From contig JAVTLE010000018.1 in NCBI GenBank assembly GCA_033439295.1, positions 744,001-808,000 of the forward strand: a stretch of DNA of 64,000 nt. The letters run 5' to 3'. The position numbers and the translations under genes are program-made. The notes under the pieces are model-generated. The model did not search any database. It saw only the letters and a list, made by a program, of their open reading frames with translations, and was not told the DNA's origin. Origin of the DNA: Deuterostichococcus epilithicus (lineage: Eukaryota > Chlorophyta > Trebouxiophyceae > Prasiolales > Stichococcaceae). Positions 8,201 through 38,637 of the stretch are shown here, one piece after another. The first letter of the stretch is position 1. Every line of letters begins with the position of its first letter.

Positions 8201-9909
8201 GGATCAACCGGTTACCTTTGCGGGGATTGCCCAGTAGGCGGTGTCGGCGGTGCCGTAGCAGAGCCGTGAAGCCCCCGCGGACCCATCAGCGCACGGAGGC
8301 CGGCCGGCGGCACCAACGAAGCCACCTAGGATTGAAAACCTTAACTCGTCCATGGACGTTGTGAAGGTTCCTGACCTTTGCGGAGGTGACCCAGTAGGCG
8401 GTGCCGACGGTGCCGCTCCAGGCGAACACCCAGCCGCTGGCCGCGAACATGGGCTTGTTCAGCGTCGTCAGCAGCGTGCCGAAGATGACCATGCGGGCCG
8501 GCGACAGCAGGTCGCCCAGCGTCCCGCTCAGCGACTTGGTCATGTTGCTGAGGAACTGCGCGATCGCCTGCAGGTTGCCAATCTGCAGACGCAGAAACAC
8601 AGGGTTTGGGGCGTGGGGGACGACAGGCCGCCCAGCATTCTGCCCAGCAAGCTGGTGGGGTTGGGTGGCAGCTGCGCAACCGCCTGCAGGTCGCCAATCT
8701 GCAGGGGCGGTAGTTTGAGGCGCGGCACTTGGCTGATGAGCACCCAGCATCGAAATGTTGAAATATGCTGCAGCATTTGGGCTGAATCCTCCGCCATCAC
8801 CTGCACGCTGCCGACCTGCGATAGCAGATTGCAATGCAGTGTGCAGAGTTCTACCAGCTCCCAATCTGCCACCAAGCACGTTCTCTGCATTGCGCTGCTC
8901 CCGCTCCATGCAGGTGCTGCCCCTCCTGCCTCCAGCAAGCACGGTGCAGCTCTGCATCCTGCAGCCCTATTCACCTGCAGCACTCGAATCGTACCCTGCA
9001 TCCAGATCCTACTCCCAACTTCTCAAACTTGCCTTGGTGTTGGATAGGCCCAGCACGTCCTGCAGGTACAGGGGGAGGTAGGTGTCGTGGATGAGCGTCG
9101 CGATGGACGACAGCATGCCAGCGCCGCACAGCGCCAGCAGCTTGGCGTTGCACTCCGGGTCCTGCGCCAGGAAAGAGCATGTTGATACATCGCCAGAGGA
9201 GACGCGGGCGCATCAGGCCTCGGAATGGGCCGACACGGCAGAGCTGAGTGCGGCATGCCCGCGCCGCACAGCACAAGCAGCTTGGCGTTACACTCTTCCA
9301 GGTCATGCACCTCAACGAAACAAAAGCAAGGAACGATCCGCTTCATGACTGTCAGAGGCATGTGAGAACTTGAAAGGCGTTCAGAGCAAGGGTCTCAGGC
9401 GGGGAGGCAGCGCCGCAGTGGGCTTCGTAATGACGGGATCGATGCAGGAATGACTGCAGCACACATGTGCCGTACAGCGCCGGGAGTGTGGTTCTGCACC
9501 CTGGCATCCTGAGGCCGCTCTTGCGGCTGCGAAGGCACCGAGGCAGCCTTCAAAGGCGCGGGCCCTGGCACGCTGCCACGCATGCACCGGCACCGGCTTG
9601 CATTGTGCATGCCCGATCGGACAGGGATAGGTATCGAGGGTCTGTGCAATTCTCCAAGCCGACTCGTTGCATTGGCCCCTACTGTTGGCGCAGGCGCTGA
9701 CGGGCCTCCACGCACAGCCATGTACGTGTTGCCACGCCTTGCCGTTGCCCGCAAGGCCGCAACCGGAGCCAACCCCACCTTGTAGGGCGTCAGCAGCTGC
9801 TTCCAGTAGGACCGAGGCTCCGCCAGAGCCCCCTGCGCTGACTGCGGGTCCGTCGCCGCCGCCGCCCCCTGCAGCCGCCGTTCCTCGGCCGCTCGCGCCG
9901 CATCATCGC
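5265..9909 (-). CDS. Major facilitator superfamily transporter
   Basis: Ten exons join in phase on the minus strand: 9909-9779, 9161-9033, 8582-8376, 7818-7719, 7430-7285, 7095-6988, 6759-6646, 6383-6200, 5952-5800 and 5461-5265 (TGA). They give about 490 residues, normal for MFS. Diagnostic parts are the cytoplasmic loop RMSKGIREAPTKALM after TM4, the TM5 motif LRQSAQTFGAMVGA, and repeated hydrophobic helices up to a final GGAALLAALLIILFWRF segment. The substrate cannot be told; the protein should lie in a membrane. Two introns, after 9033 and after 6988, use GC donors (AAG|GCAAG). The true start codon is not resolved: the exon at 9909 begins at an acceptor, so at least one exon lies upstream. 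Introns beside the exons at 9161-9033 and 8582-8376 contain diverged copies of those exons' edges. Confidence 0.88.
8214..8262 (-). repeat. Intronic copy of an exon 3' edge with don​or (MFS gene)
   Basis: This segment resembles the 3' edge of the transporter exon 8582-8376 (plus-strand 8374-8422), including the AAAG|GT donor and a reading that matches TAYW..(S/P)AK. It lies about 160 bp away in the following intron, in the same orientation. It is a partial tandem duplicate that keeps a usable-looking donor. Confidence 0.75.
8618..8709 (-). repeat. Intronic copy of an exon 5' edge with acceptor (MFS gene)
   Basis: Read on the minus strand this gives QIGDLQAVAQ...LLG.MLGGL, against QIGNLQAIAQ...LSGTLGDL at the start of the real exon (8582). 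It therefore copies about 90 bp of exon plus the CTGCAG acceptor. A weaker third copy lies near 8755-8825 (QVGSVQVMAEDS). The starts at about 8582, 8699 and 8817 are near 117 bp apart, as expected of tandem duplication. Confidence 0.75.
9251..9304 (-). repeat. Intronic copy of an exon 5' edge (MFS gene)
   Basis: This reads EECNAKLLVLCGAGMP on the minus strand, against PECNAKLLALCGAGML at the start of exon 9161-9033. The copy sits about 140 bp upstream in the preceding intron, and its acceptor CTGC has become ATGC. Confidence 0.78.
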
Positions 9910-11007
9910 CTGCGGTGGCAGAGGATGAACTCTACATGACACCTGTAAACTATCTGTAACACTAGGTACAGCTGCATTCTGACGGAGATGCAGCCGGCGG
10001 TGAAGGCCGCTGCCGTGTCCTCTGGCAAAACCATTGCGCTGCGGCTGCCAACAGATAAAGAGTCTACCGTTGTATCACAATCGATAACCTAGTGCAGTGG
10101 CAGGCCAGAAGCGCAGCGATTGCGAGCCAGGCTGCGGACCCTAGACTGCGACAGCCATGCGAACTCCAGCATGCGCTCTGTTTCGCCTCTTCTGCACTGC
10201 GCCACCAGTGCTGCTGCCGGGCGTGGGCCGCAATGTGGCCTACCGAGTCCGCCATGCAAGAGGGTTATTACAGTCCATGTACAAATGTATGTGCGCTCTG
10301 ATCGCGACAATGACTCGGGACGGCTCGCTAGGAGCATGGCAGTACGACCGTTCGAGTTGGCAGGCAGCCATCTCTGGCTGGTGGCTCATTTCAACAACGT
10401 AAGACCTTCGACATGGTCTGCAAAAACGTTGAGAACACTCAGATTGCACTGCCAGTACCCCACCTGGCGTTCGATCTGCAGGCACTGCTCCTGATTGTGC
10501 TCGCACGCAAAGCCGCTGCCTCCTGCATAGTGTCGCGGCTTCCCGGCGATCCAAGGCCGGCAAAGATATATGTCTACTCTGCTGCGCGTGCAGGTTGTGG
10601 CGTCGCGGCCAGATCCCCGCTGGCTGACTATGCTGTCGACGCTGTCCACCGAGTAATTGTGGTCCTCTGAGCGTGTGCGTCATGGTATGCTTCATGATGA
10701 CACCGAAAGAACGGTTTGCCGTCCCAGCACCCAGCTGATGGCAAGCTGAGCGTGGGAAACGGCGTAGAGTTGTGACTCCGGGCTTGAATTTGGATGGTCA
10801 AGCATCGCTTTTCAGCAAAGTGGGTATTCCAAGGCAGGGAATGGGAGAAAAGAAGCTGAAGGCGCCTGCCAATCGATGCCTTTCGAACAGGCATGACACT
10901 TGATATGTATGTGGACTGAGTTGCAAAGGCCTGACTAATCGGGATCAATGCGCTACCGCCCTATATGGCACACAAGCTGCCCGAACCTGCACTACCGCCA
11001 AGCCCGC
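9910..11007. other. Unresolved 5' part of the MFS gene and intergenic space
   Basis: The first coding exon of the transporter should lie here or slightly beyond, but no ATG exon in the right phase stood out. The rest separates the transporter 5' end from the kinesin stop codon at 11008. No other gene was recognised. Confidence 0.35.
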
Positions 11008-14000: not shown

Positions 14001-17000
14001 TCGCTTGGTCTCTGCCAGCCCTCTGTGCGCCTGCACTGCTGTTTGTGTCCTGCGCTTCGACAGCGGCTGCGCCCAGCTTGTCCGTCGGCCGCTGCCTAAA
14101 GACTGCTCGTCGCCTGAACTACGTCATCTTACAACCAGACAGACACCAACCACGCAAGCCCGGAGCATACACCTGGCTAGCTCCTGCTTGCTATAAATAC
14201 CTGCGCACGGGCGCGCTGCTCGATGGCGAGCTGCGCCGCCATGGCGGCCGCGTCGGCGCGCGNCGNCCGCGCCGCCTCCCGCTCAGTGTCCGCCTCGGCG
14301 GCCGCGTCCAGTACCGTGTCAGCGTCCGCAACGGCCTGACGGCTGGCCGCCGCCTCCGCAGCCGCGGCCTTGGCGTCCACCAGCAGCAGCGCGCCGTCGG
14401 AGGCAGCCCGGCTGTCATTTCAGGAGGAGGTTGAGCGTTCAGTGACCGTCAAGACTCAAGAGGCCTCAGAGTGCCTTTTGGCGGCCGCGCTCAGGCGGGC
14501 GGCCGTCAGCAACACAGCCCACAGCCGTATGCTGTGCTGTCAGAGGCGGCCCTGTGCTCAAGCTGGTTTGCAGCTGCTGCAAGCCTGGACTTCACAGCGC
14601 TGCGCCAGTATGTGCAGACAGCTGTGCCGCTCATGCCACAGCAGCGGCCACGCTTGTACACTCGCTGCTGTCTCTGTCCGCCAAATTGCAGCTGGATTGT
14701 AGGGTCTTCCTGCAGCCCCGCACTGAGCTTTCGGGTCGCACCTGCAAATCTCGTCAGTCGGACCTAGCGCTGCCGCCTCCCGCGCCCGCAGCGCGCGCTC
14801 CAGCTCGGCGATGACGCCGGCGCAGCGACCCAGCTCCCGCTGCAGGGCCTCCACATCGCCCCTCGTGTCCTCGTTCACCACCGCCTAGATTCATGGCACA
14901 GGACGGCGGTGCATGAGTTGTGTCGCTCTGGGATATCTGTGGCACAGAGCAGCTGCCAGCAGTAGTATCGGGGGCTGACACGATCTTAGCCAAGCCGCAC
15001 GCGATGCATGGCCACAAGAACGCTGTCCTCTGTGTCGTCGTACAGCACGGACGGCAGCACGACCAGCCCGAGCGATCGCCAAGGGCACGACTAGTGCCAG
15101 CGCTGTGCCATTGTGCTTTTTACCGGTAGCTGCAGGATTCGCCTCGGCAATGCACTCATGGTGCGCTGCACCACTCTGAAGCATCGGACCAGACCGAGCA
15201 CCACAATCGAGTCTGGCAATCGGGGCTAATACACACACCTTGTTGCGCACGCGCTTGGCCAGCTGCGCAAACTCCAGGGTGTGAAAGGTGTGTGCCACGG
15301 CCGAGGAGGCGCCGCTGACGTTGGCGATCACGAAGGTCTTGGCATTGCCGCCCAGCGACTCCTGTCGCGAGCAACTTCACACACTCTCAAAGTTGAAAAG
15401 GCAAAGTCTGGGTGAACTGCAACCCAAACCTTTCACTCATTTCATTCGACATGTGTCTTCTGTACGGCACCTGCGGCACCTGCGGCCTCGGCCGCTGATA
15501 CCTTCTGCCGCGCACCTGCCTATGCTTCCACCTTCAGCCTCTGGCGGCCTAGACTGCAGCTTCTGCGGTCGTGCAAGGCGTTAGGTGCAGCAGCAACTAC
15601 AGCATACGCAGGGGATAACAAGTCCAATGTGTGTCGTGGGGTGCACCACCTCCAGCAGGAAGGTCAGGCGGCTGTCGCGGTAGGGCACGTGTGCCGCCTC
15701 CCCCCGGGCGGCTGCCCGTGGCGTGCGCGTCAGCGCGGTGATGACCCGCTCCAGCACCGACAGCGAGGTGTTGATATGCCACGCCTCCGTCGCCTGCGCC
15801 CGGCTGCCGGGTGCAGACGTGCTGTCCGCGCGCTTGGAGCCTGCGCACATGCGGGAAAGTACACCCTCATATATGTGATGATATGAATGGGGAAAACCCT
15901 TGTCGGGCACCTTGTGCGCTAGTCAAGAAGACATGCAGCGCTGCCGGATGTTGACTGGTGCCCTGGCAGGGTGTCCTGGCAGAACGACTTCGGTCTGTGT
16001 GATCCGGCATGCTCGCGCTGCCGGGCAGCTGAACGATTGCTCGTCATGCCACATCCCTGCTGATGCCAATGCGAGCAGGTTTCGTCATCCCGTCACTGCG
16101 ACGGTCCGTACCCCAGGGTCGACAGTCTCTGGGGACCTGGTCCTGCGTGTGCTTGCCGCAGCTGCAAGCAGGAGAGGTCTGCCTGCCAGGTCGACCAAGT
16201 TGAGGCGGGAGAAGCGGATTCGCGTCAGGCCGTCAGGCGCGGTGGAGTGTGCCTCGACGTCGGGGGCAAAGACGGCATGCGAGCGGCTGGACTGCGCATT
16301 GGCGGCGGTCGCGGCAGTCGCCCGTCGCGCCTGCCCCGCTGCCAGCAGCTGCATCACCTCCTCCGCTGCGGAAACAGGGGGACTCGACTCTGGAATCCAG
16401 GCAGCTCAGGAAGCTGGTGCCACTGAGCCATTCAGCGCCATGCTCAGCACGTGTGGCAACGGCTGCCTAGACGTACTCACCTGCTGGATTGCTTGTTCGA
16501 CGAAGTTGTCGGCATGACTGCACTGCTGCAGCACTGCCTTGGTGCTCTTTCGTACGCTTAGCCTTGACGGAGATGCTGGACGTCAATTAACCGGCATGCA
16601 GGAGGGAGCGCGAAACAGGCGCACCGCTGTGAACATCCGTGCTGGACAGCCCCTTGACGAAGCAGCCGTGCCGCTGCCGGTCGTAGCCCAGCCTGAGGGA
16701 ACTCTGCCCCTCTGTCAGCGCGGCGGGCGCCAGCAAGTCAGAGATGCATTCGGCGTAAATCTCTAGGAAGGTGCACTGCACTCGGAACTTGACATCCTGC
16801 ATGGCATGAGGCGGCACACCAATGCTCTTCTGCATCCATCTGCGGCGGCTCGTTTGTATTTGTTTACGAATTTTTTATTTGTTTTTATTTTGAATATAAT
16901 AATAAATTTCTTTTATAAAGAATAAAAAATAAAAAAATAACAAATCAATTAGAAAAGAAAACCTCCCAGCAGTGCACTTGGATACCACACTTCGTACCCG

Positions 17001-19934: not shown

Positions 19935-22037
19935 GTGCACCCAACAGCCGCAGGCTGCTCAGCCAGAGCACGTGCCACAGCCGCAGCCCGTGCCCGTCAG
20001 GAGACAGCTGCTGCTGTCGGCGGCGGCAGTCCTGTGTGCCGCGCCGCTCTGGCAGCTCGACGCTGGGTCCGCGGCGGCGACGGCGCCGGGCAGCGGCGCC
20101 AGCGGCGGGCTGCGGCCGCTGCGGGGCGCTGAGAAGGGGGCGGTCGACAAGGCCCTCGCCAAGGCCATGGACAAGGCCAAGGTGTGCCGCTTCCTCGCTT
20201 CCACATGCGGATGACCGTGAATCTCGCATGCAGTCAACATGCGACAACCGTCCAGAGCTTGCAAAGTCACATGTGTCGGTGGTCTGATACAGCCTGCATT
20301 GCATGCAGCCCCCGGCGCCGCAGCAGGCGCCAGCAGCTGCACACTGACTCCCCCATGGGATCAAACTGGCGCACCATGCGCATCAAAGCCGCAACCACAG
20401 CACGCAATACAGAAAGCAGGCGACACATAATATGCGCGATTCACAGCACGGATCACACCTGTGCAGGCACCGGTCATGCTGCGGCTAGTGTTCCACGACG
20501 CCGCAACCTTCGACGCGTCCGCGGGCGACGGCGGCGCGGATGCCTCCGTGCGCTTCGAGCTTGACCGCGCGGAAAACTTCGGGCTCAAGCGCGGCTGGCG
20601 CGTCATTGAGGCGGCGCAAAAGGCGTTGGAGGGCGGCCCGGCGGCTGGCGTGGTGTCGGCGGCCGACCTGATAGCGCTGGCGGGCGCGCGGGCGGTCCGC
20701 ATCACCGGCGGCCCCGACATCGATGTGCCCATAGGTGATCTGGCAGACTCTACAGCCGAGATCGATTTGCCTATCGGCAAGGCAGGACACAGCTACAAAA
20801 GGATTGCATCTGCAGGCCATCACCGGCGGCGCGACATCGATGTACCCACACGAGAGGCAACCTGAATACGCCCATAGGTGAATGGATGGCACTGTCATGG
20901 GAGGATGGCATCTGCAGCTGCAGGCCGTTGCTGGCGCGACGAACCTTGTGCTGCAGGTACATACCGCACGATGCTCCTGGGCCGTCGTTCAGCTGAGCAT
21001 CCTCCCTCTTCATGCACGGCTTCTCACGCCCTGCTGCCGGCGCCCCGTGCAGGCAGGCGGGACGCAATGGCGGCGGGCCCGACGGACCGCCTGCCAGCAG
21101 AGACCATGGGCGCCGCGGAGCAGCGGGCAGCGTTCGCCGCCAAGACCATCAGCACGCAGGACATGGTCGCGCTGCTGGGCGCGCACACGGTGAGTGCCCT
21201 GCCGAGCCGGGGACTCAAACTCTGGACTGAAGAAGCTCCAGGCGGGTGGGAGAGGAGGAGAGCGAGCGGCTTGTGCAGGGCAACGCAAGGCGTGCGGGCA
21301 CCTGCATGCTCTGCAGCGGCTGCCCTGCATGAGGGGCGCGGTCCACCGGAGCCTCAAAGCACGGCCTCACCAATCATGGCCCACGACCACTGCGTCCATT
21401 CAAGGTAATGCAATGCGCAGCCGGGTTTTGATGGCATGGCACGGCCTTGCGCAGCTGCAGCAGGACCACCTTCACCAGCGCCGCAGTGGCATGGGCCGGA
21501 CGAGTCTGGTCTGAGGCTGCCCTTGTGTGTGCACCGCAGCTGGGCAACAAGGGTTTTGGCGACCCAGTGACATTCGACAATGCGTACTACACAGCGCTGC
21601 AGTCCAAGCCCTGGGCGGGGGCGCCGGCAGACTCCATGGCCGCCATGATCGGCCTGCCCTCCGACAAGGTCGATTCGTGACCCTCGATGCGACATCACCA
21701 CTTGTGTGCACCTGCATTTTGTACTGATGTGCTTTGCTGATCCCCGCGCCTCAAGGCAGGAGCTTCACATGCTGCTGAGCTGGCCCTGTGGGTCTCTCGA
21801 CCTTGGATAGGTGCCCTGCTGAAACAGACGCCATGCTGGACGGTCGCTTGCTGCATTGTATAGCGGGCCCTCAACACGAGACTCAGAGGCTCACGCAAGT
21901 TCTGCATGCAGGTTATTGCTGACGACCCGGAGTGCCGCCCGTACATTGACGGCTATGCAAAGGACCAGCAGCGATTCTTCACCGAATTTGCGGCGGCGTA
22001 TGTGAAGCTGACGACGCTTGGGGCCATACCGGCATGA
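19935..22037 (+). CDS. Class I haem peroxidase (ascorbate peroxidase type), predicted thylakoid-lumen targeted
   Basis: Exons about 19935-20181, 20467-20734, 21053-21189, 21540-21668 and 21912-22037 (TGA) give about 300 residues after an unresolved first exon. Distal site: MLRLVFHDAATF, with Arg and His spaced as in class I peroxidases. Then ITGGPDIDVPIGRRDA, as in APX. Proximal site: QDMVALLGAHT with the haem-ligand His. Then GFGDPVTFDNAYY and LPSDK. Both catalytic His and the Arg are kept, so activity (H2O2 reduction, probably with ascorbate) is likely. Before the domain, RRQLLLSAAAVLCAAPLW looks like a twin-arginine thylakoid signal, placing it in the lumen like plant TL29/APX4. The intron after 20734 holds repeated copies of the exon's 3' edge. 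The gene is convergent with the phosphatase gene. Confidence 0.85.
20757..20880 (+). repeat. Intronic copies of an exon 3' edge (peroxidase gene)
   Basis: The real exon ends ACATCGATGTGCCCATAG|GTGA at 20734. Related strings follow in the intron: AGATCGATTTGCCTATCGG at 20760, CATCACCGGCGG...GACATCGATGTACCCA at 20820-20850, and GCCCATAG|GTGAATGG at 20869. At least two copies keep part of the donor. Confidence 0.72.
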
Positions 22038-24779: not shown

Positions 24780-27700
24780 ATGCAGCAGAGGTCTGCTTTG
24801 AGGGCCGTCTTGAAGGGAGCAGCTGCTATGGCGGCCTTCGCCTCTTCAGGCGCGGCGGCCTCCGGTGTCGCACGGTCGACACAGCGTTCCGCACTCGTCC
24901 TGCAGCGGCTGCTGCCGCAGATCGGCGAGGCGACGCCGCGGCTGCCATGCCTGCAGACAGGGCGCCTGGGTTTTACGACAGCCACCGCCTCCCGCCGGCA
25001 ATTATGCTGCGCGCAGGCGGCGCAGAGCCGGCGTGACATGTCGGCACACGCTGCTGCGGTGAGAGCCCGGCTCCACTGGAAGTACTTGCTGTAAATATCA
25101 CCGTGTCGGAACTGCGCAGTCCCGCCGCCGAGCGTTGCGTGCTCCTAGCGCGGCCGGATCCGTGGCCGCCTGGCGGTACAACACGACTGGGATCACGTCC
25201 TGATATCTGCACGGCCAACGGCACGCAGCGCCCTGCTGGCCCTGCAATCTGGCACCCCAAAACGGGACAGCAAGCCAGCGCGGATGTCTGGTGCAGCTGC
25301 GATCCGCGACTTGCTTGAAGTTCTGCTGCCGTCTCTATCGTGACTCATCCATTGCACGTAGCCTGTCTGTTGCGCTAGCATGCACGCAGCATGCCTGCTG
25401 AGGCTGGTGCCGTGCGCCGTGGCGGGGGTTGCAAACTGCCAATCACTTGTTGCTCTAGTATGCCACAGCCATCAAACGTCAAAGCATATGAGATACTCCT
25501 TCGTTGCATGAGGTGTTGCAGCAGGGTGTGTTGCCCGTCTTACCAGCAGACTCGTGGTGGTTTGGCTTGTCGCCGCCCCTCCGGGGGGCATCGTGTTTTG
25601 TAAACACGCGGCTGCGCGGCTGCTCGAGCCGCTGCTCGAGCCGACCTGTTTCCCACAGAAGGCCTTGCTGCTCTCACTGCAAACCACCTCGACTGTCTGT
25701 CGTGACTAGCCTCTTGAACACAGGTTAATGTCATATGTGCAGCTTGAGGATGAGCTGGATGTGGAGTCCCCAGAGGCAGACCTCGAAGCCTCCCTGGAGG
25801 CAGAGTTCGAGGCGGCTCGCGCAAAGGTCGCCGATACGCCCGCCAGCCTGTCGTCGCTTTTTGAAGACGACGAGGTGGTGGAGGTAGATGCCACCATCCA
25901 GGACGAGACGCTGCTGGTGCGCTCGCGGCCGCAAGGCATTGATTGCTGGCTGGTGGCCCAGCGCCAAGCAGCATGCGGACTTGCGGGCGATTCAACCAAG
26001 CATCCCAATGCGGCGCAACAGCAAGCTTGACTCGCAGCATTCATGCAGGGCCTTGCATGCGCTGGCGTTTGGCTGCCCAGCGAGTGTGCCGTGATGAATT
26101 GACTGACATGACAATACAATACAATACAATTCAATATATTACAATATTACTCTGAGCAGCTTGGGTTGACGCCGCTCTTGCCGCCCTTGCAGCTGGCAAA
26201 TTGCGGGCTGTCGGACGCCACCGTCAAGGGCCTGGAGAAGCGGGGCATCGCCTCCCTGTTCCCCATCCAGAAGCACGTCTTTGAGCCGGCCATGGCTGGC
26301 CGCGACCTCATCGGCCGCGCCCGTACCGGCTCCGGCAAGACGCTTGCCTTTGCGCTGCCCGTCATCGAGAGCCTGGTTAAGGTGGGCCCGGTCACAGTGC
26401 GGAACATGCTTTGTTGAGCGTGCGCGAGAGAGCTCACAGGGGTTTTAGCTCCTGGCTTGCAGCAGGTTCCACATGCTATAACCTCTTACCCTATTGCGCT
26501 CGTGCAGATGCGTTCTCTCGGTCAGCCAATGTCCCGGCTGCTCCACGAGTCTGACAGGCAGCCATTGGCAAACCGTTGCAGGAAGACGAGGACGCCGGCG
26601 GCAGGAAGCGCGCCGGCCGGCCGCCGCGCTGCATCGTGCTGGTGCCCACGCGCGAGCTGGCGCAGCAGGTGCAGCGAGAGTTTGCAGAGTCCGCGCCCAC
26701 CCTCAGCGTTGGCGTCTTCTACGGCGGTGCGCGCTCTGCTGTGGAAGTCAGGCTGTGTTTTGGCACGGCCTGTCGGTTCTAGGATTTCAGGGTGGTTTTC
26801 CTTTCGCTGCCGCGGTTAGACTGTTGCGCTGCGCAGATTGACTGCACTTGTGTACCGGATCATAAGCGATTTGCATCTGCGTCTCGCACCAGGCGCCGCC
26901 TGGTGCGGAGGCACAGTGCTACATCTGAGCCGGGATGAAGTGGTACAAGCAAACGCCATCGTCGGATGGCCTCAACTGATGTGTGACCCCCATGTCGTGG
27001 ACCGCAGGCGCGCCCATCCAGAACCAGAAGCAGCTGCTGCGGCGGGGCGTGGACGTGGCCGTCGGCACCCCCGGTCGCATCATCGACCTCATTGAGACCA
27101 GCGGCTCCCTGGACCTGTCGCAGATCCGGTGCGAGCTTGCCGCCTGACCCGCCAGTGTGTGGCAGCTGTGCCCCTGCGCCGGTCTGACAAATGCCCAGCG
27201 TTCTGCCCTTTGCTGGACCAGCAACGAGGAGGCACATAGCACACGTTCGTAGTGCTTTGCCCACTTGGCATTCCGCTCTGTTTCCGAGAGTCAATACAGC
27301 GTTTCATCTCGCATACTCGTCTCCCGCCCCTGGACCCTGATGGCTCCCATGCCCGGAACCTGAGGCCGCCAATGCGCTGCGGCTCAGCGTTGCCGCACAG
27401 AGCAGACTGCATGCTGTCCCCCTGGCTTCGAGGAGCACGTGAGACTTATCACTCGCGATTGGAGATTTGATGGGTTTGACGGACTTCCAGCCGTGTCGCC
27501 GAAATGTCAGTCGTACCTGTCCTGCCGCAGCTTCGCCATCCTGGACGAGGCGGACCGCATGCTGTCCATCGGCTTCGAGGAGGACGTGGAGCGCATCCTG
27601 GAGAACGCGCCCAAGGAGCGCCAGACGCTGCTGTTCTCCGCGACCATGCCCACCTGGGTCAAGAAGCTGACGCGCCGCTTCCAGAACCAGCCCATCACCG

Positions 27701-30700
27701 TGGACCTGGTCGGCGATGAGGAGGCCGGCAAGATGGCGGAGACCATCAGGTGGGGTTGGGGTTTAGGGTCTGTCCGGCGGCGTGTTGGTGGTGCGGCTTG
27801 CCGCGCCATGCCGCGCCGTGCTTCCCCTTTGCTCCCGCCTTGTGCAGCCCAGTGCAGGCATGCTGCTGATGCAGCAGTGCTTGGCTGTGGCTGTGGCTGT
27901 GGCTGTGGCTGTCGTCGTGTCTCCTGGCTTACAGCTCCAGTGGCCGTGTTTGTAGGCTGCAGCAGACTCGTGCTTCATTGATAACAATCTTCCTCAGGGA
28001 ACGGTCGAAGCCTGACTGCGCGCCTCAGGTCCGCCAGAGCCAGAGAGCTCACCCTCACCGGCCTCTCCGTCGCAGGCTGCTGGCGGTGCAGATCCACCCG
28101 GACGCGCGGCGCAGTGTGCTGGTTGACCTGCTGACGGTGTACGGCGCCGGCGGCAAGGCCATCGTGTTCACGTCCACCAAGCGCGATGCCGACGAGGTGT
28201 CCGCTGCCATCGCCAGCAGCATGCCCACCGAGGTGCGCGTCTCCTGCTGTGTTTGTCACCCTCCCAAACACATCGCAATCTGGAGTGTAACCAGTGGAGC
28301 CTCGAGCCCGAAAGAGCAGGTGTATGTCACCCGTGCACTCGTGTCCGCCGCCGTTGCCAGCAGCATGCCTTCCGCGGTTCTGCGCAGCTTTGCTCTGATT
28401 GCAGTTTGGAACCAAGCGGAACTGGATGGGAGCAGGGACAGATGATCTAGCCGCAGCAGCTTGATCAGCAACGATGGGCCCCACCGAAGTGTCGGTCTGC
28501 ACACCTTGGCCTCTCAAACCCTGTCTGCACGCCAGGCAAGGTTGGCACTGAAGGTTCACATCGAGGCGGGGCCACATTGCGAGGCCACACGGCAGCGTCC
28601 TGCGGTGCGGCACACCTTGCAGCCCTGCGGCAGGGTCGGCGCCCTGCGGTTGAGCCCACAATCGGTACGGAGGGATGAACCACAGTCCATGCCACACTCC
28701 GCAGGCGCTGCACGGCGACATCGCACAGAGCAGCCGTGAGCGCGTGCTCAAGCGCTTCCGGGAGGGCAAGACGCTGGTGCTGGTGGCCACAGACGTCGCG
28801 GCGCGCGGCCTCGACATCCCCAACGTCGACCTCGTCGTCCACTACGAGCTGCCAAATGTGCGCCCACCCACTGCCTTCGGGGCTTGTGGCGGCAGCTCGT
28901 TCCTGATGGAGGGCAGGCTGGGCGGAAGGGAGACGGCCCTGGTTGGCATGAGCCAGGAGACCAGTCGTGCAGAGCATGCCGCCAAGTGTACACATCACTC
29001 ACCGCTTGAGCTGTCTGCGCTCTGTGTGTCAGAGGCTGCAGGTTGACTGGCTGGCGATCTGTGGCGATGCCTCACCCCATCCCCCGGCGCCTGTCGCAGG
29101 AGATCGAGTCGTTCCTGCATCGCTCGGGGCGCACGGGACGCGCCAACCGCACCGGCACGGCGGTGGCGATGTACACCGCCAAGGAGGGGCGCTACCTCAA
29201 CCGCATCCTGAAGGAGACCTCCATCACTAACTGTGAGGTGGTGCCGCCGCCGCAGCCCAAGCAGGTCATGGACTCGTCCGCCAAGGCGGTGAGTGCCCCG
29301 CCTTAACTTCGCAATTGTTCTCGGAATGCCCGCACACCCCCTCAAACCTGCCGCTTATGCTTGCAGGGGCTGTACCAGAGTATCTGTTGCGCCAGTTGCA
29401 GTCGCTGTGTGCACCTGCTTCCGGCGCCGCCATCAGCAAAGTGCAGAACCCTCTATACCTGCTCTGTTATCCGTCGACCGCAAGAGCAGATTGCCCCGGA
29501 CGAGTGAGCCCACATCAAAAATTCCGATCCCAACAACAGGTGGTTGGCCGCCTGGACATGGTGGACCCCAAGTTGCTGAGCTTCTTCCAGCCGGCGGCGG
29601 AGAAGGTGATGAGCTCCGCCGACCCGACCGCTGCGATGGCCGCCGCGCTCGCCGCGCTGTCTGGCATCAAGGAGATCCCCAAGCCGCGCTCCCTGCTTGC
29701 TCAGGTGCGCCGCAGTCTTTATATCCGGTATCTTGTCTGACATAAAACACAATGGCATGCCAATCATGCGGGAGCGCACGAACACACGAGCCAGCGTGGT
29801 GCGCACCTCCGCCGAGTGTGAATGGGACCGACCCGGCTGTTGCGCTGTTGCTGCAGCACCATTAACAGGCGCACTGCGCCAGTTCGTCGTCAAGCGCCCC
29901 CCCTGATGCTGGCCTGCCCTTGCGACCCCAACAGGAGGAGGGCCAGGTGACGATGCGCATGATGGCGCGCCCTGGCCGCATCAGGGGTGTCGGCTCCGTG
30001 TTTGGCGTGCTGCGCAATGCGCTGTCGGACGAGCGCGCCAACAGCGTCGGCAAGATCAGGCTGCTCGTTGGCCAGCCCGAGGGCGACGGTGCGTTCTCAT
30101 CCAGGCGAATTTTGATGCCCCGCAATCCGGCTCCTCCGCGCTGGCCTGCCTCATGTCACAAGTCGGGGCTGGTCCGGTGGCCCTCGTCTCGTCTGAACCC
30201 TCGCTTTGCGCGCGACGCCTGCTTGCAACACAGCTGGGCGTTTTCCACTCTGGAGCTTGCTGCTGGGCTGCCGCGTAAGAACGTGCGCGGAGCATCGACA
30301 TGCGCCTGCTGGCGTTGACGCCGCGCTGGGCGCGCTTCATGCAGGCACATTCTCACACCCTAAATCCTGTATGCAGGCGCGGCCTTCGACCTGCCAGAGG
30401 ACGTGGCGGCAGAGCTCATGGCGGCGTCCGAGGAGCTGACCACACGCGGCATCACACTGGACCAGCCGACCAGCCTGCCGGCTGAGCAGATGGTGGACGA
30501 CGGCTACGCGCCGCGCGGCGGCCGCGACCGGTATGGCGGCGGCGGCGGCGGCGGCGGCTTCCGTGGCGGCAGCCGTGGCGGCGGNGGGGGNGGGTACAAC
30601 CGCGACAGCCGCGGCGGCGGCAGTCGCGGCGGCGGCGGCGGCTACGGCTGCGCTGCGACGGCGGCAGCCGCGGCGGCGGCGGCAGTTACNGATCGCGCGA

Positions 30701-31143
30701 TGGCGCGCCCCGCGGCGGCGGCGGCGCCANTGGCTGGGGCGAGCGGCGGTCGGGCGGCGGCCGCGGCGGCGGCGGCCGTGGTGGCGGCGGAAGCTTTGGC
30801 GACAGGTGACTCTTTGGCCCACCACCCGTGGTCTGCGTCAGGGATTGTACAATGAAGCATGCTGCGGCAAGCATGACACTGTGGGCAGACACATAGCGCC
30901 GACCTTTCCTCTTCAGTTGTTATGGGGCGGGCTGTTGCGGTAGACACCTCAGTGCTGCTGCTGGTTCGACCTTGCGAGTTGGCCCTGATGAGCTTCGTCT
31001 TATCGTGCAGGACTGGCGGCGGCCGGTCATACGGCAGCAGCAGCTACAGCGGCGGCGGCGCGGGCCGCGGCGCCCGCACGCCTGCTCCCCAACCCTGGGA
31101 CTTTGGTGGCAAGTCTGCCGGCGGCAATGCGACAGAGTGGTAG
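24780..31143 (+). CDS. DEAD-box RNA helicase, organelle-targeted RH3-like
   Basis: Thirteen exons: 24780-25058, 25743-25916, 26193-26381, 26582-26726, 27008-27128, 27531-27749, 28076-28232, 28705-28857, 29100-29288, 29540-29704, 29935-30088, 30377-30805 and 31011-31143 (TAG). Exon 1 encodes an Arg/Ala/Ser-rich transit peptide, exon 2 an acidic linker. Core motifs: Q-motif [38 protein letters not shown] and HRSGRTGR. After the core comes a GUCT-like region ([11 protein letters not shown]), then a Gly/Arg-rich RGG tail. The region around [11 protein letters not shown] and TKRDADEV matches plant RH3, a plastid helicase in intron splicing and ribosome assembly; mitochondrial RH9/RH53 are alternatives. 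Exon 12 changes frame once, near 30650, between ambiguous bases at 30585, 30591, 30690 and 30730, so a sequencing indel in the GGC-rich run is likely. Confidence 0.9.
26111..26148. repeat. (ACAAT)n microsatellite
   Basis: Four perfect ACAAT units, then degenerate copies, lie in intron 2 of the helicase, just before the acceptor at 26192. Confidence 0.9.
27883..27912. repeat. (GGCTGT)5 microsatellite
   Basis: Five perfect units in helicase intron 6. Confidence 0.95.
28343..28383 (+). repeat. Intronic copy of an exon 3' edge (helicase gene)
   Basis: This reads [12 protein letters not shown] in the intron after exon 28076-28232, whose end reads [11 protein letters not shown]. It is a same-orientation copy about 144 bp downstream, with its donor decayed from GAG|GTGCGC to GCG|GTTCTG. 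Confidence 0.78.
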
Positions 31144-32253: not shown

Positions 32254-32795
32254 TCATTTCGCAGGCTTGGTCAGCTGCCGCTCCTTTGACTGCCCGCTGG
32301 AGTACCTGGAACCTGGATCGCCAGCTGGTGCAAAAGCCCAGACGAGCATGCCGCACACGACCGCCGCCGCCAGGCCAGAGTTGGCGTAAGGGTGCTTTGC
32401 GTAGGCCTGCAGCATCAGCAGCGCCTCTTGAATGGTTTATGTAGCTTTACACGGCTTATCAGCTTAGCTCAAGAAGTGAGCTAGACCTGCGACGGGGCTG
32501 CAGTGCCTCTACATCAGTCCTGTGATGCCAGTTTTGTATCAAGGCTGACGTGCAGACATGCGGCTCAAGATCGCATCAAACTCAAAACAACAGACTCACA
32601 TAGCGCCACTGCTCGCCGAGCGTGGGGGGCTTGAAGCCCTTCGGAGTCGTGAAAGGCTTTGGCACCCCCTCTTTGGATCCATTGCCTTCCGACATCAAGC
32701 TAAACTCTGGCGTGGGAATCCAGATGCCAATGATATTGGACTCGATTGAACTCGAGCCCGCAGTTGTGCGGATGTACAAACGCCCGCCCGCCACG
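32254..32795 (-). CDS. Unrecognised small protein with one probable membrane segment
   Basis: Two exons join in phase 0: an upstream one ending at 32600 (..TLGEQWRY|GTGAGT) and a terminal one 32424-32254 (TGA). The first reads GIWIPTPEF, then EGNGSKEGVPKPF, then GFKPPTLGEQW. The second has ALLMLQAYAKHPYANSG, then a hydrophobic run LAAAVVCGMLVWAFAPA, then a basic tail ending LTKPAK. This layout suits a small single-span organellar membrane subunit, but I do not recognise the family. No in-frame ATG opens the first exon, so at least one 5' exon is missing; its acceptor may be anywhere from about 32720 to 32795. The gene is divergent from the P5C dehydrogenase gene. Confidence 0.55.
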
Positions 32796-33238
32796 TATCA
32801 CATCGAACTAGAATGTGTCGACCAGTTACCGGCCAATTGTGGGCTCGCTCACACTCAGTAGACACGAGCAATTTTTTTGTTTTTGTCTGGAAAGAGGCAG
32901 TTTCACACAGACTGGCACAGTCCACAGCGGGCAGAGCAGGAGGTGCAAATTGCTGGTGGAATCTTGTGCAATCGCAGTCCCCAGTTTCCCGCTGGCGCTG
33001 GTGATCACGTGCCGCGCTCAGCGAGCTTGTGAACGAAAGCAGAGCCGCTCTGAAGAGGAGTTTCCTAGCGTAGAGTGACCTGATCCAATCGCTTGAAACT
33101 GTCAACGTGCCAGCCGCGCCAACGTAGCAGCTGTGCTGGCGGCTCAGCTGAGAGTCGAGTGCTAGTCCAGCCGGGTGCCAGTCGATTACCTGGCAAATCA
33201 GGAACGTATTCTATTGCGGACCACTGCAGAGGGCGGCC
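32796..33238. other. Divergent spacer
   Basis: This lies between the unrecognised minus-strand gene and the P5C dehydrogenase start. It probably holds the missing 5' exon of the former and both promoters. No element is called. Confidence 0.4.
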
Positions 33239-36200
33239 ATGCAAGTGGGTCTGAGAAGAGCAGCCGGACCGCTCGCTGGCCGGCTGTTTGGGACGTCGGG
33301 CATCAGATGCGCAGGGGCCTGGGCCACCGTCGATCCGGGGGCGCTGTCTGGCTCGAAGCCCGGCAAGGCCTACAATTGCGGTGAGCAGCCAGATTGCAGC
33401 TTGCGAACGGTCCGGTGACCGCCATCTCGTCCGCGTGCAACAATTACTCATGCACCGTAACTCAGCACTCGACCCACCTAGCTGCGAGCTGTTGGTCGGC
33501 ATGTGTCAGAATCACTGACATGAATCACGTCTCACGTGAATGGGGTGACCCATGCATACGGGCCGAAGGGTCACCGTTGTACCTGCGCTGCGCGTAGTTG
33601 ACGGCGTGTGGGTCCGCGCCAACGAGGACAGGACGGTTCCGGACCCGCTGAACGGGGAGCCCTTCATCTCGTACCCCAACATCAGCACGTCCGAGGCGCA
33701 GCCGTTCATTGACAGCCTGCGCAGGGTGCCCAAGACGGGGCTGCACAACCCACTCAAGAACCCAGAGCGCTACCTGCTGTATGGCGCCATCTCCGCACGC
33801 ATGGCGGAGGAGATGCGCAAGCCCGAGGTGGGCTGAGCGCATCCGAAGATGGCAGCATGTGTGCGATGGCAGTGAGCCGGCGCGACAGTCGTGAGCACGC
33901 TTGTTGCTCGCTGTGCTGCTGCTACACAGTGTCAATAGGCGGTGATACGGCTGATGAGGGCGCATGCGCAGCATCCCAGATGTCACGTTGGTCGCTGGAC
34001 TGTTATGTGAAGCGCCGCCTGGTGCTGCTGCCGCCTGCCCTGAATTGCCGCACACCGTGACCGCAGCCTGATGCAGTTACCGCGGCCCGGTACATGCTGG
34101 CGCCAGCACCTGACGCGCTGCAAATGTGACTTTCACTCAAAAACTAATCTCTTTGTCTTTTTCTTCTGTCCAGGTGGCGGACTTTTTCGCGCGGCTGGTG
34201 CAGCGGGTGGCGCCCAAGCACTACGCACAGGCGATGGCGGAGGTCACCGTCACACGCCTGTTCCTGGAAAACTTTTCCGGCGACCAGGTGCGTACGCTGG
34301 CTGCAATTCGACACATGATGAGCGGGAAACATGATGAACATTTGCGCTTGCCCATGTCGCTGCCGCATGGTGCGCAGCCCCGCATAGAACCTGGCAAATT
34401 TCGGTGACCAGGCTCGTCGGGTGACGGACTGCGTGCATGGCCACACCATCATCACTTGGTGTGCAGCCCAGGTTGGCAGCAGCAGCAGCGTCACCAGGAC
34501 GGACAGCTTCATTCTGCCCAGCACTGCTGGCATTGCTGGCATGGCTGGTTGCGGGAGCCTCCAGCAGCTGACAGCAGCGAATGCGGGGGCATCAGGAAGG
34601 GCATCAATGTGCTTCATGTCTCCCCCTCGCAGGTGCGCTTCATGGCGCGCTCGTTCGGCGTTTCGGGTGACCACGCGGGCCAGACCAGCCAAGGTTACCG
34701 CTGGCCTTTCGGCCCGGTGGGCATCATCACGCCTTTCAACTTCCCGCTGGAGATCCCTGCGCTGCAGCTCATGGGCGCGCTGTACATGGGCAACAAGCCG
34801 CTGCTGCACGTGGACCGCAGGTGGGTTTTGAGGTTTAGAGTCCTTTGAGTCCAGGTTGTTTTGGATCGTCAAGTACGGCGCTGATGCTGCGCATGGGCAC
34901 AAGGCCACGGCTGCGCACACGGACTCCAGGCGCGGCAGGGTTTTTGGTTGTCCCGCATTTGCCCTAGAAGGGCTGCTGGAGAGCTGCCAGGGGGCTGGAC
35001 TGCGTGGAAAACCGCTCAGCTTGCAGCAGCAGCGAGGATGGCTCGGTTCCCGCACCCTGGGGTGAACATTGCATCTGCTCGGTGCCGTGCGGCTGCGTGC
35101 TGGCGCCCCGGCAGCATGCTGGCGCGGCCTCGGCAGGTGTAGAGCGCTGCGGCTCGGACAGAGGAGACCGTCCGGCCTGTGGCCTGGCCACCGGCTGCGG
35201 GTCGCTGGAAGTCATGGACGCCGCACAGCCTGCAGAGGGGCCGCCCGCTAGTGCGCAGAGGCCAACATAGCAACCTTGTCGTCACTGACTGCAAGCCTTC
35301 TTCTATCACCCCAGGGTGTCCATCGTGGCGGAGCACTTCGTGCGCCTGCTGCAGCACTGCGGCATGCCGGAGGCGGACGTGGACTTCGTGCACGGCGACG
35401 GCAAAGTCGTGGGCCATGTCCTGAAGACGGCGCCGGTCCGCTCCACGCTATTCACCGGGAGCCAGGCTGTCGCGGAGCATCTGGTCGTCGACCTCAAGGG
35501 CAAGGTGCGAGCACCAAAAAAACCTGCCACGATCTCCGCCCAGCCGTGCAGCGAGCTCGGGCTTCTGCTTGACAAGGCAGCACCAGTGCGCCGCTCCGAT
35601 CACATCATGGGCAGCGGTGGCGGCAACATGCCCATGCAAGACCCGGGAATCGCTTGAGTACAGGGTTTCGCCCCTCTGGCACAGTGCCCTGGGCGGCGCA
35701 GCTGCGCGCATCGCCCTGGCTGCCAAGATGGCCCCCACTTGTGGCTTGCCGAGTGCTGCCGGGCTGCCCAGCAGTGTCGCCGGCTCGTGGCAACCACCCT
35801 TCCGCCGCCGGCGACCCTCCATGCCGCCTTTCGATCTGCTTCCCGCTCCCTGTTCTCGCCTGTGTTCCTGGAGGTTGTGGGGCTTCGACTGCAAGGTGCT
35901 GGGGGCCTTGTGCCCCCGCCGCTGTTCGTACCGCGTTCCCAACCATATTCATCTTTCCGCTGCCGCGCGTGTTTTTGGAGGACGTGGGCTCTGTTTGGGA
36001 GGTGCCAGGACCCTCGATTCCCGCCGCCAGTCCTGCTCAGCTGCTTCCTGCTTCCACCGCACAGGTGTTCCTGGAGGACGCGGGCTTCGTCTGGGAGGTG
36101 CCAGCATCCGCGATTCCCGCCGCCGGTCCTGCTCAGCCGCTCCCTGCTTCCGCTGTGCAGGTGTTCCTGGAGGACGCGGGCTTCGACTGGAAGGTGCTGG

Positions 36201-38637
36201 GCCCCGACGTCAGCAACGAGGCGTACGTGGCGTGGCAGTGCGACCAGGACGCCTACGCCTGCTCCGGGCAGAAGTGTTCCGCGACGTCGCTGCTGTTCAT
36301 GCACGCCAACTGGGTGCAGGCCGGTGCGTGAGCTGGCTCGTGAAAGACGCATTCCAGTGCCAGTCGCTGCTGTTCATGCACGCCGCCCGAGCGCAGGCCG
36401 GGACGCCTTGCCGCTTGTCCCGACTGCGCAGCAGCACGCTGTCCATTGTCTGATGGCCGACCACTGTGCAGTGCAGCACAGTCCCCACGCAGGTGCATCC
36501 GTCAGTACCTCGCTTGTCCACGGCGCCGGCAACTGTCGTGATGGTGCCGGCGTTCTCCGTTCACGTGCCTGGCGTGCAGGATTGTCCTCGCTACCCTGGC
36601 ACAGGCCGTTTATCACACAAGCCATTGCAGAAAGTCGCTCAGAACTCTGGCATCATGCAAGCCAGGGACTCCATGACGAGCTGCTCGGGCTTGTGCCAGG
36701 GGGGTCGGGCTTGTGCCAGGGGGGTCAAGTTCCCAGTGCAGCCTCCCGGGTCCTGCAAACAGGCTCGGAGAAGCAGCTTCAGCAGAGCGCTGGAGGCAAC
36801 GCAGGCCCCGAAACAGACAGTTCTGCACTCTGCGCATGCTGCGGCTCGTGCTGGGGTCTCTGAGTCGCATTCGGCGCCACAATGCGACAGGCCTGGAGAA
36901 GCGGCTGGCGGAGCGTGCAGGACGGCGCAAGTTGGAGGACCTGAGCATCGGGCCGGTGCTGTCGTGGACCACGGAGCGCATGCTCCAGCACGTCGATGCG
37001 CTGCTGAAGATCCCGGGTGCGCCACCTGCTTCCCAGAACCTTGTTTTCGCTGCTTTCGGGTGGATTTGCGCAGCTGTGGCTGTGCAGACGGCGGTGGCGC
37101 TGCCGTGAAGCTCGGCGGCATGAGCGATAGCGCGTCCCTGAGAGTGCAGGCTGCCACAGCTGCGCTGAGGTCTCAGATGGCTGATGGGCAGCGCTGATTG
37201 CAGCCGCTGCAGCCCGGGGTCGCGGCATTGTCGCAGGAGCCCAAGCCTTGCTCAGCCTCCCTCGAAGCTTAGCCTTCCAAGCAGGTCGCCCTGTGGCGCG
37301 CCCGTGTCGACATCGATGCCCATGTGTTGACACCGGCGGCCTGACCGCAGGCGCGCGGCTGGCCTGGGGCGGCAAGCCGCTGGAGGGGCACTCCATCCCG
37401 GAGGTGTACGGCGCCATCCAGCCAACAGCGGTGTACGTCCCGCTGGACCAGATCCTGGCCTCCGACGCGAACTGGGAGCTGGTCAACACCGAGCTGTTCG
37501 GCCCCTTCCAGGTGATGGGGTTTCTTTGGTTGGGCAGCAGTATCAGGAGTATTCTCAGCAGGGATCCGTCGGGCTGTGGCCTGGTCCGCGGCAGGGCGGC
37601 GTGCACTGCAAGCACTGGTTTCTTGCCTTGCTTGAGAGCGCAACAGACGTGCAGCCAGGTGGCTCCGCAGCGCTATGCATCCGCAGCATGGAAGACTGAA
37701 GCTGCTGTCGTGGCCACTGCCGCTACTGTCTCTCGAGGCAGCCTACTACCTAACTGACATGGGCTGCTGTTTCCATTTGTCCAGCCCATGGGTCTGGCCA
37801 AAGTTGGCCATAAGCAACGCGCTCCTACTTCTGACCTCCATCTGCATTGCCTCCCCAGGTGCTGACAGAGTACAACGACGAGACGCTGCCGGCGGTGCTG
37901 GGCGCCCTGGAGCGCATGAGCCAGCACCTCACCGCCGCCGTCGTCTCCAACGACCGCCTGTTCCAGCAGAAGGTGGGCTGCCCATCCGCAGTCCAGTCTG
38001 AGGATGCATCTCCAGCCGAGGCTTGCGGCACCACTGTCAGCAGCACCAGTGATTACGTTTCTCAACTGCCCTTGGAGCTTGGCGTGTTGGTGGTATTGAC
38101 AGCGGCTTTGAGGTTTGCCCACGGGTGCAGAACGCCGCCCTGTCCCCGCTGCGCAGGTGCTGGCCAACACCGTCAACGGGACGAGCTACACGGGCATCAG
38201 GGGCCGCACGACCGGCGCGCCGCAGAACCACTGGTTCGGCCCCTCCGGTGACCCGCGCGGCGCCGGCATCGGCACGCCCGAGGCGCGCTGCTGGCTGCCT
38301 TGTCACATGTGGAGCCCATTGGACGGGCGCGGGGCTATGCAGAAGCCCACCCCAACTTGCGGCTTCAGCCATGCGATTTGTGCGGCTGTCTTGCAGACAG
38401 GCAGCCTTGCGGCAGGGGGTGCACCACCTTGAAATAGCATTGCTGGTGCTCAGCCATGTCAGTTGCCGCTTCCGCAACCTCAACCGTGCCCCAGGGCGAC
38501 GACGTGAACGTGTTGAAACACAGCTGACGGTCCCGCTTCCTCCGCAGGCCATCCGGCTGGTGTGGTCTGCGCACCGGGAGATTGTGACAGACGAGGGCCC
38601 GGTGCCCACCGACGAGTCGCTGCTGGTCACCACCTGA
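33239..38637 (+). CDS. Delta-1-pyrroline-5-carboxylate dehydrogenase, mitochondrial (ALDH12 family)
   Basis: Eleven exons join in phase: 33239-33380, 33598-33827, 34174-34287, 34633-34820, 35315-35504, 36161-36323, 36891-37016, 37351-37511, 37859-37972, 38157-38282 and 38548-38637 (TGA), about 547 residues (plant ALDH12A1 is about 556). It oxidises P5C/glutamate semialdehyde to glutamate with NAD+, the second step of proline breakdown. The N-terminus is an Arg-rich mitochondrial presequence (MQVGLRRAAGPLAGRLF), then ATVDPGALSGS as in plant P5CDH. Further matches are DPLNGEPF, GYRWPFGPVGIITPFNFP, LEDAGFDWKVLGPD, the catalytic Cys in SGQKCSA, ELFGPFQ, and GRTTGAPQNHWFGPSGD. The intron after 38282 uses a GC donor (GAG|GCGCGC). 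The intron before exon 36161 holds tandem acceptor-bearing copies of that exon's 5' edge. Confidence 0.95.
35862..36190 (+). repeat. Tandem exon-edge units before P5CDH exon 6
   Basis: GTGTTCCTGGAGG-type strings begin at 35862, 35969, 36065 and 36161 (the real exon). The last two intervals are exactly 96 bp. Each unit is about 30-40 bp of exon (VFLED.G..WEV) plus a pyrimidine-rich intron end, and the later units carry their own CAG acceptor. The frame stays open across the 96-bp units into the true exon. Confidence 0.88.
36354..36420 (+). repeat. Intronic copy of P5CDH exon 6 3' edge
   Basis: CAGTCGCTGCTGTTCATGCA at 36361 repeats the end of exon 36161-36323 (TSLLFMHANWVQA) as QSLLFMHAARAQA, 77 bp downstream. 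The donor, CCG|GTGCGT in the exon, has become CCGGGACG. Confidence 0.82.
36685..36724 (+). repeat. 20-bp tandem duplication
   Basis: TCGGGCTTGTGCCAGGGGGG occurs twice in direct succession in a P5CDH intron. Confidence 0.9.

What the first reader, a model, noticed from the sequence alone, without database searches (positions are those of the whole stretch)
8214..36420. Recurrent intronic 'exon echoes': diverged tandem copies of exon edges with their splice sites
In four unrelated genes (MFS transporter, peroxidase, DEAD-box helicase, P5CDH) an intron carries same-orientation copies of about 35-95 bp of the adjoining exon edge, on the same side as that edge and 77-160 bp away. Many keep the acceptor or donor, and their translation is still visibly related. 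One case would be a chance duplication; several independent cases in 64 kb suggest an ongoing process in this genome, such as local tandem duplication across splice sites. It could seed new introns, decoy or alternative splice sites, or exon lengthening. I know of no described family of such elements, but I cannot search the literature or the genome.
Basis: partly seen in the sequence, partly recalled or inferred. Interest (0 to 1): 0.85.

Follow-up and report, generated by a model that had tools for sequence, protein, structure and literature searches.

The report
Decayed exon-edge duplications inside introns
In this photosynthetic eukaryote's genome, short stretches of DNA spanning the border between a gene's coding part and its intron have probably been duplicated side by side; the spare copy lies inside the intron, decays there, and is found mostly in long introns.

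Summary
The four genes hold 11 same-strand intronic copies of exon edges, including an older one in the MFS gene. In 294 kb of the same genome 22 of 982 exon edges have a copy in the adjoining intron; controls: 0 of 982 reverse complement, 0 of 9820 other introns, 0 of 550 far exon ends. Spacing is 77-183 nt in 24 of 27, median 118. Best reading: tandem duplication of units of about 80-180 bp crossing an exon-intron border; splicing removes the extra copy, which drifts. Copies concentrate in long introns (24 of 98 introns >=350 nt, 2 of 393 shorter), so such duplications probably lengthen introns. The process is known; a potato RdRp gene shows nearly the same arrangement. Unexplained: almost no young copies, few intron-only pairs, no intergenic pairs, and an intron half that often no longer matches. 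Age, with the exon as frozen reference, explains much of this; an edge-specific process is not excluded. 'Ongoing' is not supported. No RNA data and no related genome were available; gene models outside two hand-checked genes are unbenchmarked predictions.

The parts
9033..9161 (-). MFS exon whose acceptor edge (match 9113-9155) was copied
   Evidence: predicted gene model; MFS_1 match of the encoded protein
9253..9295 (-). acceptor-side echo of that exon, 140 nt upstream in the 617-nt intron, 39/43 identical, AG lost
8376..8582 (-). MFS exon with both edges echoed (acceptor edge at 8582, donor GT at 8375-8374)
   Evidence: donor; the start is set by hand, since the HMM used an older echo for the first residues
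8616..8704 (-). acceptor-side echo 1 of the 8582 edge, spacing 116 nt, AG kept, 83 nt of exon matched at 74%; its intron flank scores 84.8 against a null maximum of 83.8 (300 draws)
8753..8815 (-). older echo 2 of the same edge, a further 117 nt upstream, AG kept; scores 81.8 against the real edge (null maximum 79.8) but not above the null maximum against echo 1 (68.8 against 97.8)
8214..8255 (-). donor-side echo of the exon end at 8376, 160 nt downstream, GT kept
20700..20734 (+). peroxidase exon end that was copied
20818..20851 (+). donor-side echo, spacing 117 nt, GT lost; by eye the far end of the unit also matches
27531..27749 (+). DEAD-box exon (copied part 27550-27588)
   Evidence: hand model; collinear with Nucleolar RNA helicase 2, PDB 6l5m
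27402..27441 (+). acceptor-side echo, spacing 148 nt; the exon start and acceptor are deleted or diverged in the echo
28076..28232 (+). DEAD-box exon whose donor edge was copied
28341..28378 (+). donor-side echo, spacing 144 nt, GT kept
36161..36323 (+). P5CDH exon 6, both edges copied
   Evidence: hand model; collinear with ALDH12, PDB 6d97
36065..36160 (+). tandem unit next to exon 6 (96 bp): an echo with AG and an internal GT that the HMM reads as a 33-nt in-frame exon (36065-36097)
35969..36064 (+). second 96-bp tandem unit, older, acceptor AG lost
35862..35903 (+). further echo, 299 nt from the real edge
36363..36401 (+). donor-side echo of exon 6, spacing 77 nt, GT changed to GG

Best explanation
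The echoes are decayed tandem duplications. A unit of about 80-180 bp spanning an exon-intron border was duplicated head to tail. At an acceptor the downstream copy stays in use; at a donor the upstream copy does. Either way the extra exon piece and its splice site fall inside a longer intron and are spliced out. The extra copy then drifts while the used copy is held by selection on the protein, so old events stay visible at exon edges and are erased elsewhere. Repetition at one edge gives arrays and long introns. Shown here: local origin, direct orientation, edge anchoring, several complete or repeated units, association with long introns, no sign of selection on the echoes. Inferred: that units were contiguous where the intron half no longer aligns, that the echoes are spliced out (no RNA data), and a break-repair origin.
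For: Edge test 22/982 against 0/982, 0/9820 and 0/550 in controls. Complete units still visible: P5CDH 96 bp and one on C15 with 159 bp matching at period 133. Intron halves match better than random introns as a set (31 scored, 6 with p<0.05, median p 0.24, Fisher p 1.4e-6). A second copy in the same intron for 6 of 27 echoes against 5 of 901 in a null; MFS spacing 116 and 117 nt. Introns with echoes: 0/266 below 250 nt, 2/127 at 250-349, 11/49 at 350-499, 11/37 at 500-799, 2/12 above; medians 521.5 and 233 nt. Introns of 350-899 nt also hold more internal direct repeats (11 of 87 at score >=30; inverted 2) than those of 200-349 nt (4 of 237; inverted 0). In the two hand-modelled genes the four echo-bearing introns are the two longest of the 10 introns modelled in each (656, 567; 472, 402). 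Drift: mismatches by codon position 53/378, 47/374, 64/374; AG/GT kept in 14/27 (by eye), inside the simulated range for drift (0.27-0.83 over tandem settings). The process is documented (PMC4974935, abstract and Results read; PMC8355091, passages).
Against: Simulated tandem units with exon parts <=65 nt at K 0.15-0.25 keep a detectable intron half in 0.38-0.97 (0.15 and 0.48 at K 0.3), against 6/31 seen; the test is not sharp, for the plainly tandem P5CDH unit gets p 0.17. Exon matches end within 63 nt of the edge in 27/27, while random unit positions put 36-50% beyond 65 nt in 13 of 14 settings and 8% in one; this is biased, since the HMM calls longer echoes exons, and 1 of 8 hand-checked window edges (MFS 8582) has 83 nt. 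Of the 6 second copies only two lie near a multiple (89/183, 133/266); the others are 118/210, 94/225, 116/210 and 344/130. In the MFS array echo 1 and echo 2 do not match each other above the null maximum. Young pairs are nearly absent, and intron-intron and intergenic pairs are rare (3 and 0 against 35 exon-intron or border pairs >=36 bits). A constant rate does not fit; a past burst or edge-specific retention is needed.
Confidence: 0.7

Rival explanations
1. Short patch copying: only about 35-65 nt of exon edge plus a few intron bases were copied about 120 nt away (templated insertion during break repair, or template switching), not a contiguous tandem unit.
For: 25 of 31 echoes lack a clear intron half (p>=0.05). 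Ungapped identity over 23 echoes falls from 0.53 in the first 6 intron bases to 0.36 in the next 6 and 0.28-0.34 beyond, background 0.26. Simulated patches fit exon length, identity and AG/GT retention.
Against: Complete units and repeated copies exist. The intron p-values are skewed low as a set. Copies are direct, whereas end-joining patches are, as I recall, found in both orientations. Random patches would not be anchored to exon edges (22 of 27 matches start within 7 nt).
Confidence: 0.15
2. Echoes are kept by selection as splicing decoys, enhancer copies or alternative exons.
For: Similarity covers the splice site and mostly the first 60 nt of exon, where splicing enhancers act (recalled). 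One P5CDH echo keeps AG, a GT and an open 33-nt frame.
Against: Mismatches nearly uniform over codon positions, spacing not biased to multiples of three, AG/GT retention 14/27 as drift gives.
Confidence: 0.07
3. Gene-model artefact: the echoes are missed real exons, or the introns are mis-called.
For: The home-made HMM is not benchmarked and itself calls some echoes exons.
Against: P5CDH and the helicase are collinear with solved homologues without the echoes, and the pattern holds in both.
Confidence: 0.04
4. Dispersed intron-making elements (introners) that carry exon-like ends.
For: Introns with partly shared sequence in several genes.
Against: Three echo-intron queries match only their own gene in the 46.8 Mb genome; 0 of 9820 edge comparisons with other introns reach score 42.
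Confidence: 0.02

Closest known systems
Tandem duplication across an intron-exon border in the potato RdRp gene (Ma, Lan and Niu 2016, PMC4974935; abstract and Results read)
   Same: Direct duplication of an intron 3' part plus an exon 5' part, copies side by side; the paper also mentions an 83-bp tandem duplication inside the first intron.
   Different: There the extra exon piece is spliced in and a new intron arises; here the extra copy lies, by gene model, inside one longer intron. The P5CDH 33-nt unit could be a potato-type case, by HMM prediction only. One described case there; 27 edge echoes in 294 kb here, and more diverged.
Tandem genomic duplication model of intron gain (Rogers 1989; Hellsten 2011; Gao and Lynch 2009; seen only through passages of the review PMC3443670 and through PMC4974935)
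   Same: Short tandem duplications involving exon sequence and splice sites.
   Different: The model duplicates an AGGT-bearing exon piece, which makes a new intron as long as the unit; here existing introns seem extended, and in none of the 22 cases does the period equal the intron length.
Small tandem duplications from break repair (CST and Pol alpha-primase fill-in, PMC8355091; passages seen)
   Same: Short direct duplications that do not need repeats; a plausible mutational source. [quoted passage not shown]
   Different: Shown at induced breaks in mouse and human cells, in the passages seen with overhangs of about 43-50 bp; nothing ties it to this organism.
Repair-mediated duplications by capture of proximal DNA (Pace 2009, PMC2671141; passages seen)
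   Same: Local duplicates in vertebrate genomes, many in introns; 4 donors in its Table 2 are partial exon/intron.
   Different: That study excludes copies within 50 bp as tandem duplications, counts donors up to 5 kb away and shows one exon copy in opposite orientation; here the copies are direct and about 120 nt away.

Membership tests
Tandem duplication across an exon-intron border | Copies in direct orientation at short distance | tested here: met
   22/982 direct against 0/982 reverse complement; 0 inverted pairs >=38 bits with arms 16-400 nt apart, other limits: 52 direct, 2 inverted; median spacing 118 nt
Tandem duplication across an exon-intron border | Unit contiguous: similarity fills the whole spacing | tested here: inconclusive
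   complete in some pairs; significant as a set but only 6 of 31 singly
Tandem duplication across an exon-intron border | The border is part of the unit | tested here: met
   22/27 matches start within 7 nt of the edge; the two splice bases are 0.67 identical over 23 echoes; AG/GT in 14/27 (by eye)
Tandem duplication across an exon-intron border | Absent before the event in relatives | not testable with these tools
   states that this genome has no relatives here
Intron gain by tandem duplication (Rogers type) | Intron length equals the duplication period | tested here: not met
   0 of 22 cases
Introner elements | Similar copies dispersed over many genes | tested here: not met
   three queries only
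Mutually exclusive or alternative exons | Coding constraint on the second copy | tested here: not met
   mismatches nearly uniform over codon positions in 27 echoes
Mutually exclusive or alternative exons | Use in transcripts | not testable with these tools
   no RNA data

The most novel reading that the evidence does not exclude
An edge-specific process, coupled to transcription or splicing, copies the splice site and roughly the first 35-65 nt of exon into the adjoining intron about 120 nt away and is a main source of long introns in this lineage; it acts little on intron-only or intergenic DNA.
Probability: 0.12. Interest if true: 0.85.

Novelty: new variant of a known kind. Interest (0 to 1): 0.5.

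Why it matters
If the pattern holds genome-wide, exon edges act as recorders of old short duplications that vanish elsewhere, and intron length in a compact genome can be traced to a nameable mutational step: 24 of 98 introns of 350 nt or more in the sample carry a recognisable edge echo. That makes the origin of intron growth testable with this genome plus one relative. It also warns gene finders: the one built here called some echoes exons.

Tried and rejected
Chance or composition: rejected by reverse-complement, other-intron and far-exon controls. Dispersed element: no other copy for three queries. Constraint on echoes: no sign. Rogers-type new introns: 0 of 22. Constant-rate random tandem duplication: does not fit age, exon reach or the share of intron halves; the exon-reach misfit is weakened by HMM bias and by the 83-nt MFS case. 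A first flank test had 7 of 26 at p<0.05; one search replaced it with more null draws and another scoring. My first alignment display aligned most stretches to themselves and was discarded. One search stopped on a script error and was redone. Literature: nine searches, of which I saw the listings (titles and starts of abstracts); none of the listed papers presents such echoes as a genome-wide class. The library lacks most subscription journals, and two papers I wanted (Gao and Lynch 2009; Hellsten 2011) are not held under the ids tried.
Full report
What was given. The window is part of a 46.8 Mb, 21-contig genome, about 61% G+C, with 39 matches to chlorophyll a/b-binding proteins and intron-rich genes, so I take it to be a photosynthetic eukaryote; the species was not identified.

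Check in the window. Self-comparison found the reported pairs and a P5CDH copy 299 nt from its edge; one search adds an older MFS copy, 11 copies in all. Gene identities were checked with Pfam. P5CDH and the helicase align with PDB 6d97 (ALDH12; query 27-541) and 6l5m (Nucleolar RNA helicase 2; query 65-428) without the extra copies, which fixes the coding copy there. The 96-bp P5CDH array is plain tandem repetition.

Genome-wide test. I took 230 kb from seven other contigs and wrote a small HMM gene finder, started from hand-made P5CDH and helicase models plus long open reading frames and then self-trained. It gives 491 introns in genes with at least 300 nt of coding sequence. It is not benchmarked and merges some neighbours (one 29-exon 'gene' covers the MFS gene and another gene). 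Each 60-nt exon edge was compared with its own intron: at score >=42, 22 of 982 edges matched (9 donor, 13 acceptor), against 0 of 982 for the reverse complement, 0 of 9820 for length-matched introns of other genes and 0 of 550 for the far end of the exon. At score >=34 the counts are 32/982, 0/982, 1/9820 and 2/550.

Anatomy. Among 27 edge echoes at score >=38 the spacing runs from 49 to 344 nt (median 118, quartiles 105.5-142, 24 of 27 within 77-183). In a slightly different run with longer queries (also 27 echoes) the match starts within 7 nt of the edge in 22 and ends within 63 nt in all 27, mean identity 0.846. That upper limit is partly an artefact: the HMM calls longer echoes exons, and the hand-set MFS edge at 8582 has 83 matching exon bases at 74%. 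The splice dinucleotide survives in 14 of 27 (by eye). In 6 of 27 a second copy (score >=28) lies in the same intron, null 5 of 901; two of the six are near exact multiples. P5CDH (96, 192, 299) and the MFS gene (116, 233) are further arrays, though the two MFS echoes do not match each other above the null maximum.

Intron length. Echo introns are long: median 521.5 against 233 nt. The share with an echo is 0/78 (50-149 nt), 0/188 (150-249), 2/127 (250-349), 11/49 (350-499), 11/37 (500-799) and 2/12 (800 and more). In the two hand-modelled genes the four echo-bearing introns are the two longest of ten in each. I read this as growth by added units. A longer intron also has more room, but 335 introns below 350 nt are long enough for a 118-nt spacing and only 2 introns below 350 nt carry an echo. 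Introns of 350-899 nt also hold internal direct repeats (11 of 87 at score >=30, inverted 2; introns of 200-349 nt: 4 of 237, inverted 0).

Fate. Mismatches fall almost evenly on codon positions (53/378, 47/374, 64/374), and spacing is not biased to multiples of three (6, 14, 7). The intronic copies look free to drift; the slight third-position excess fits synonymous change in the exon.

Tandem unit or patch? Alignments of whole units show contiguous units in some cases and only the exon part in others. Scored against random introns, the intron halves match in 6 of 31 at p<0.05 (one more case was skipped as too short), with the set skewed low (median p 0.24, Fisher p 1.4e-6). The test is not sharp: the plainly tandem P5CDH unit gets p 0.17. 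Ungapped identity over 23 echoes falls from 0.53 in the first six intron bases to 0.28-0.36 beyond, background 0.26; exon bases left out of the detection are only 0.57-0.67 identical (19 echoes), so the true divergence is larger than 0.846 suggests. Simulations show that neutral tandem units of the same apparent age should keep more intron similarity unless they are old (K about 0.25-0.3) and rich in indels; patches fit these single measures but not the repeated and complete units. I favour old tandem units, with a possible patch component.

Why exon edges? Among direct pairs >=36 bits, 35 are exon-intron or involve a border stretch, 11 exon-exon, 2 exon-intergenic, 3 intron-intron and 0 intergenic; there is no inverted pair in that range, while between 24 and 36 bits there are 67 direct and 21 inverted. 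Rates at score >=34 are 28/823 edges, 10/954 intron stretches, 2/679 intergenic stretches and 2/136 exon stretches, with 0 in every reverse-complement and other-sequence control. One exon copy is frozen by selection, so old events stay visible there: at K 0.25-0.3 simulated intron-only units are found in 0-8.5% and border units in 9-42%. Age can therefore explain much of the excess. But young pairs are then too few: 0 of 27 edge echoes exceed 93% identity, where a constant rate gives about 27% (my sum over), and of 52 pairs of any class only two do (C3 40795, C1 48991, both intron-intron). Either duplications were commoner in the past, or something favours edges. This is the open part.

Distribution. 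Two large predicted genes hold 13 of the 22 echoes: a 31-exon gene on C15 with 7 and a 45-exon gene on C1 with 6 (gene spans). The density is uneven.

Prior work. The potato RdRp case (PMC4974935, abstract and Results read) is nearly the same configuration with a new intron as outcome. The review PMC3443670 (passages) calls tandem genomic duplication the only proposed intron-gain mechanism shown in vivo. PMC8355091 (passages) gives a repair route for small tandem duplications. PMC2671141 (passages) describes proximal repair duplications in vertebrates. In the listings of nine searches of an open-licence library I saw no description of exon-edge echoes as a genome-wide class.

Verdict. Real and present across the sampled genome, most likely decayed short tandem duplications tied to long introns; a known process with an unusual, countable footprint, and one unexplained skew in age and place.

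Noticed in passing
window 48420-48478: A 59-bp near-perfect palindrome (94.9% self-complementary), the highest-scoring inverted match in the listing.
   Followed up: no
window 38283: P5CDH intron 10 starts with GC rather than GT in the hand model that makes the protein collinear with ALDH12.
   Followed up: partly
window 36065-36097: A P5CDH echo keeps an acceptor, an internal GT and an open 33-nt frame, and the HMM reads it as an exon; a possible potato-type new exon and intron.
   Followed up: partly
G000 C15:303553-319978 (L024-L025): One predicted 31-exon gene carries 7 of the 22 edge echoes; echo density is uneven between genes.
   Followed up: partly
G000 C4:1011863-1014100 (L014): Larger local direct repeats with periods of 295-525 nt, mostly in predicted intron, different in scale from the echoes.
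   Followed up: no
window 30535-30790: GGC-repeat (glycine-rich) tail of the helicase gene with four single N bases; the reading frame is uncertain there.
   Followed up: no
window 16850-16965: An A+T-rich stretch in G+C-rich surroundings, inside the merged predicted gene on the minus strand that looks kinesin-like by eye (not searched).
   Followed up: no
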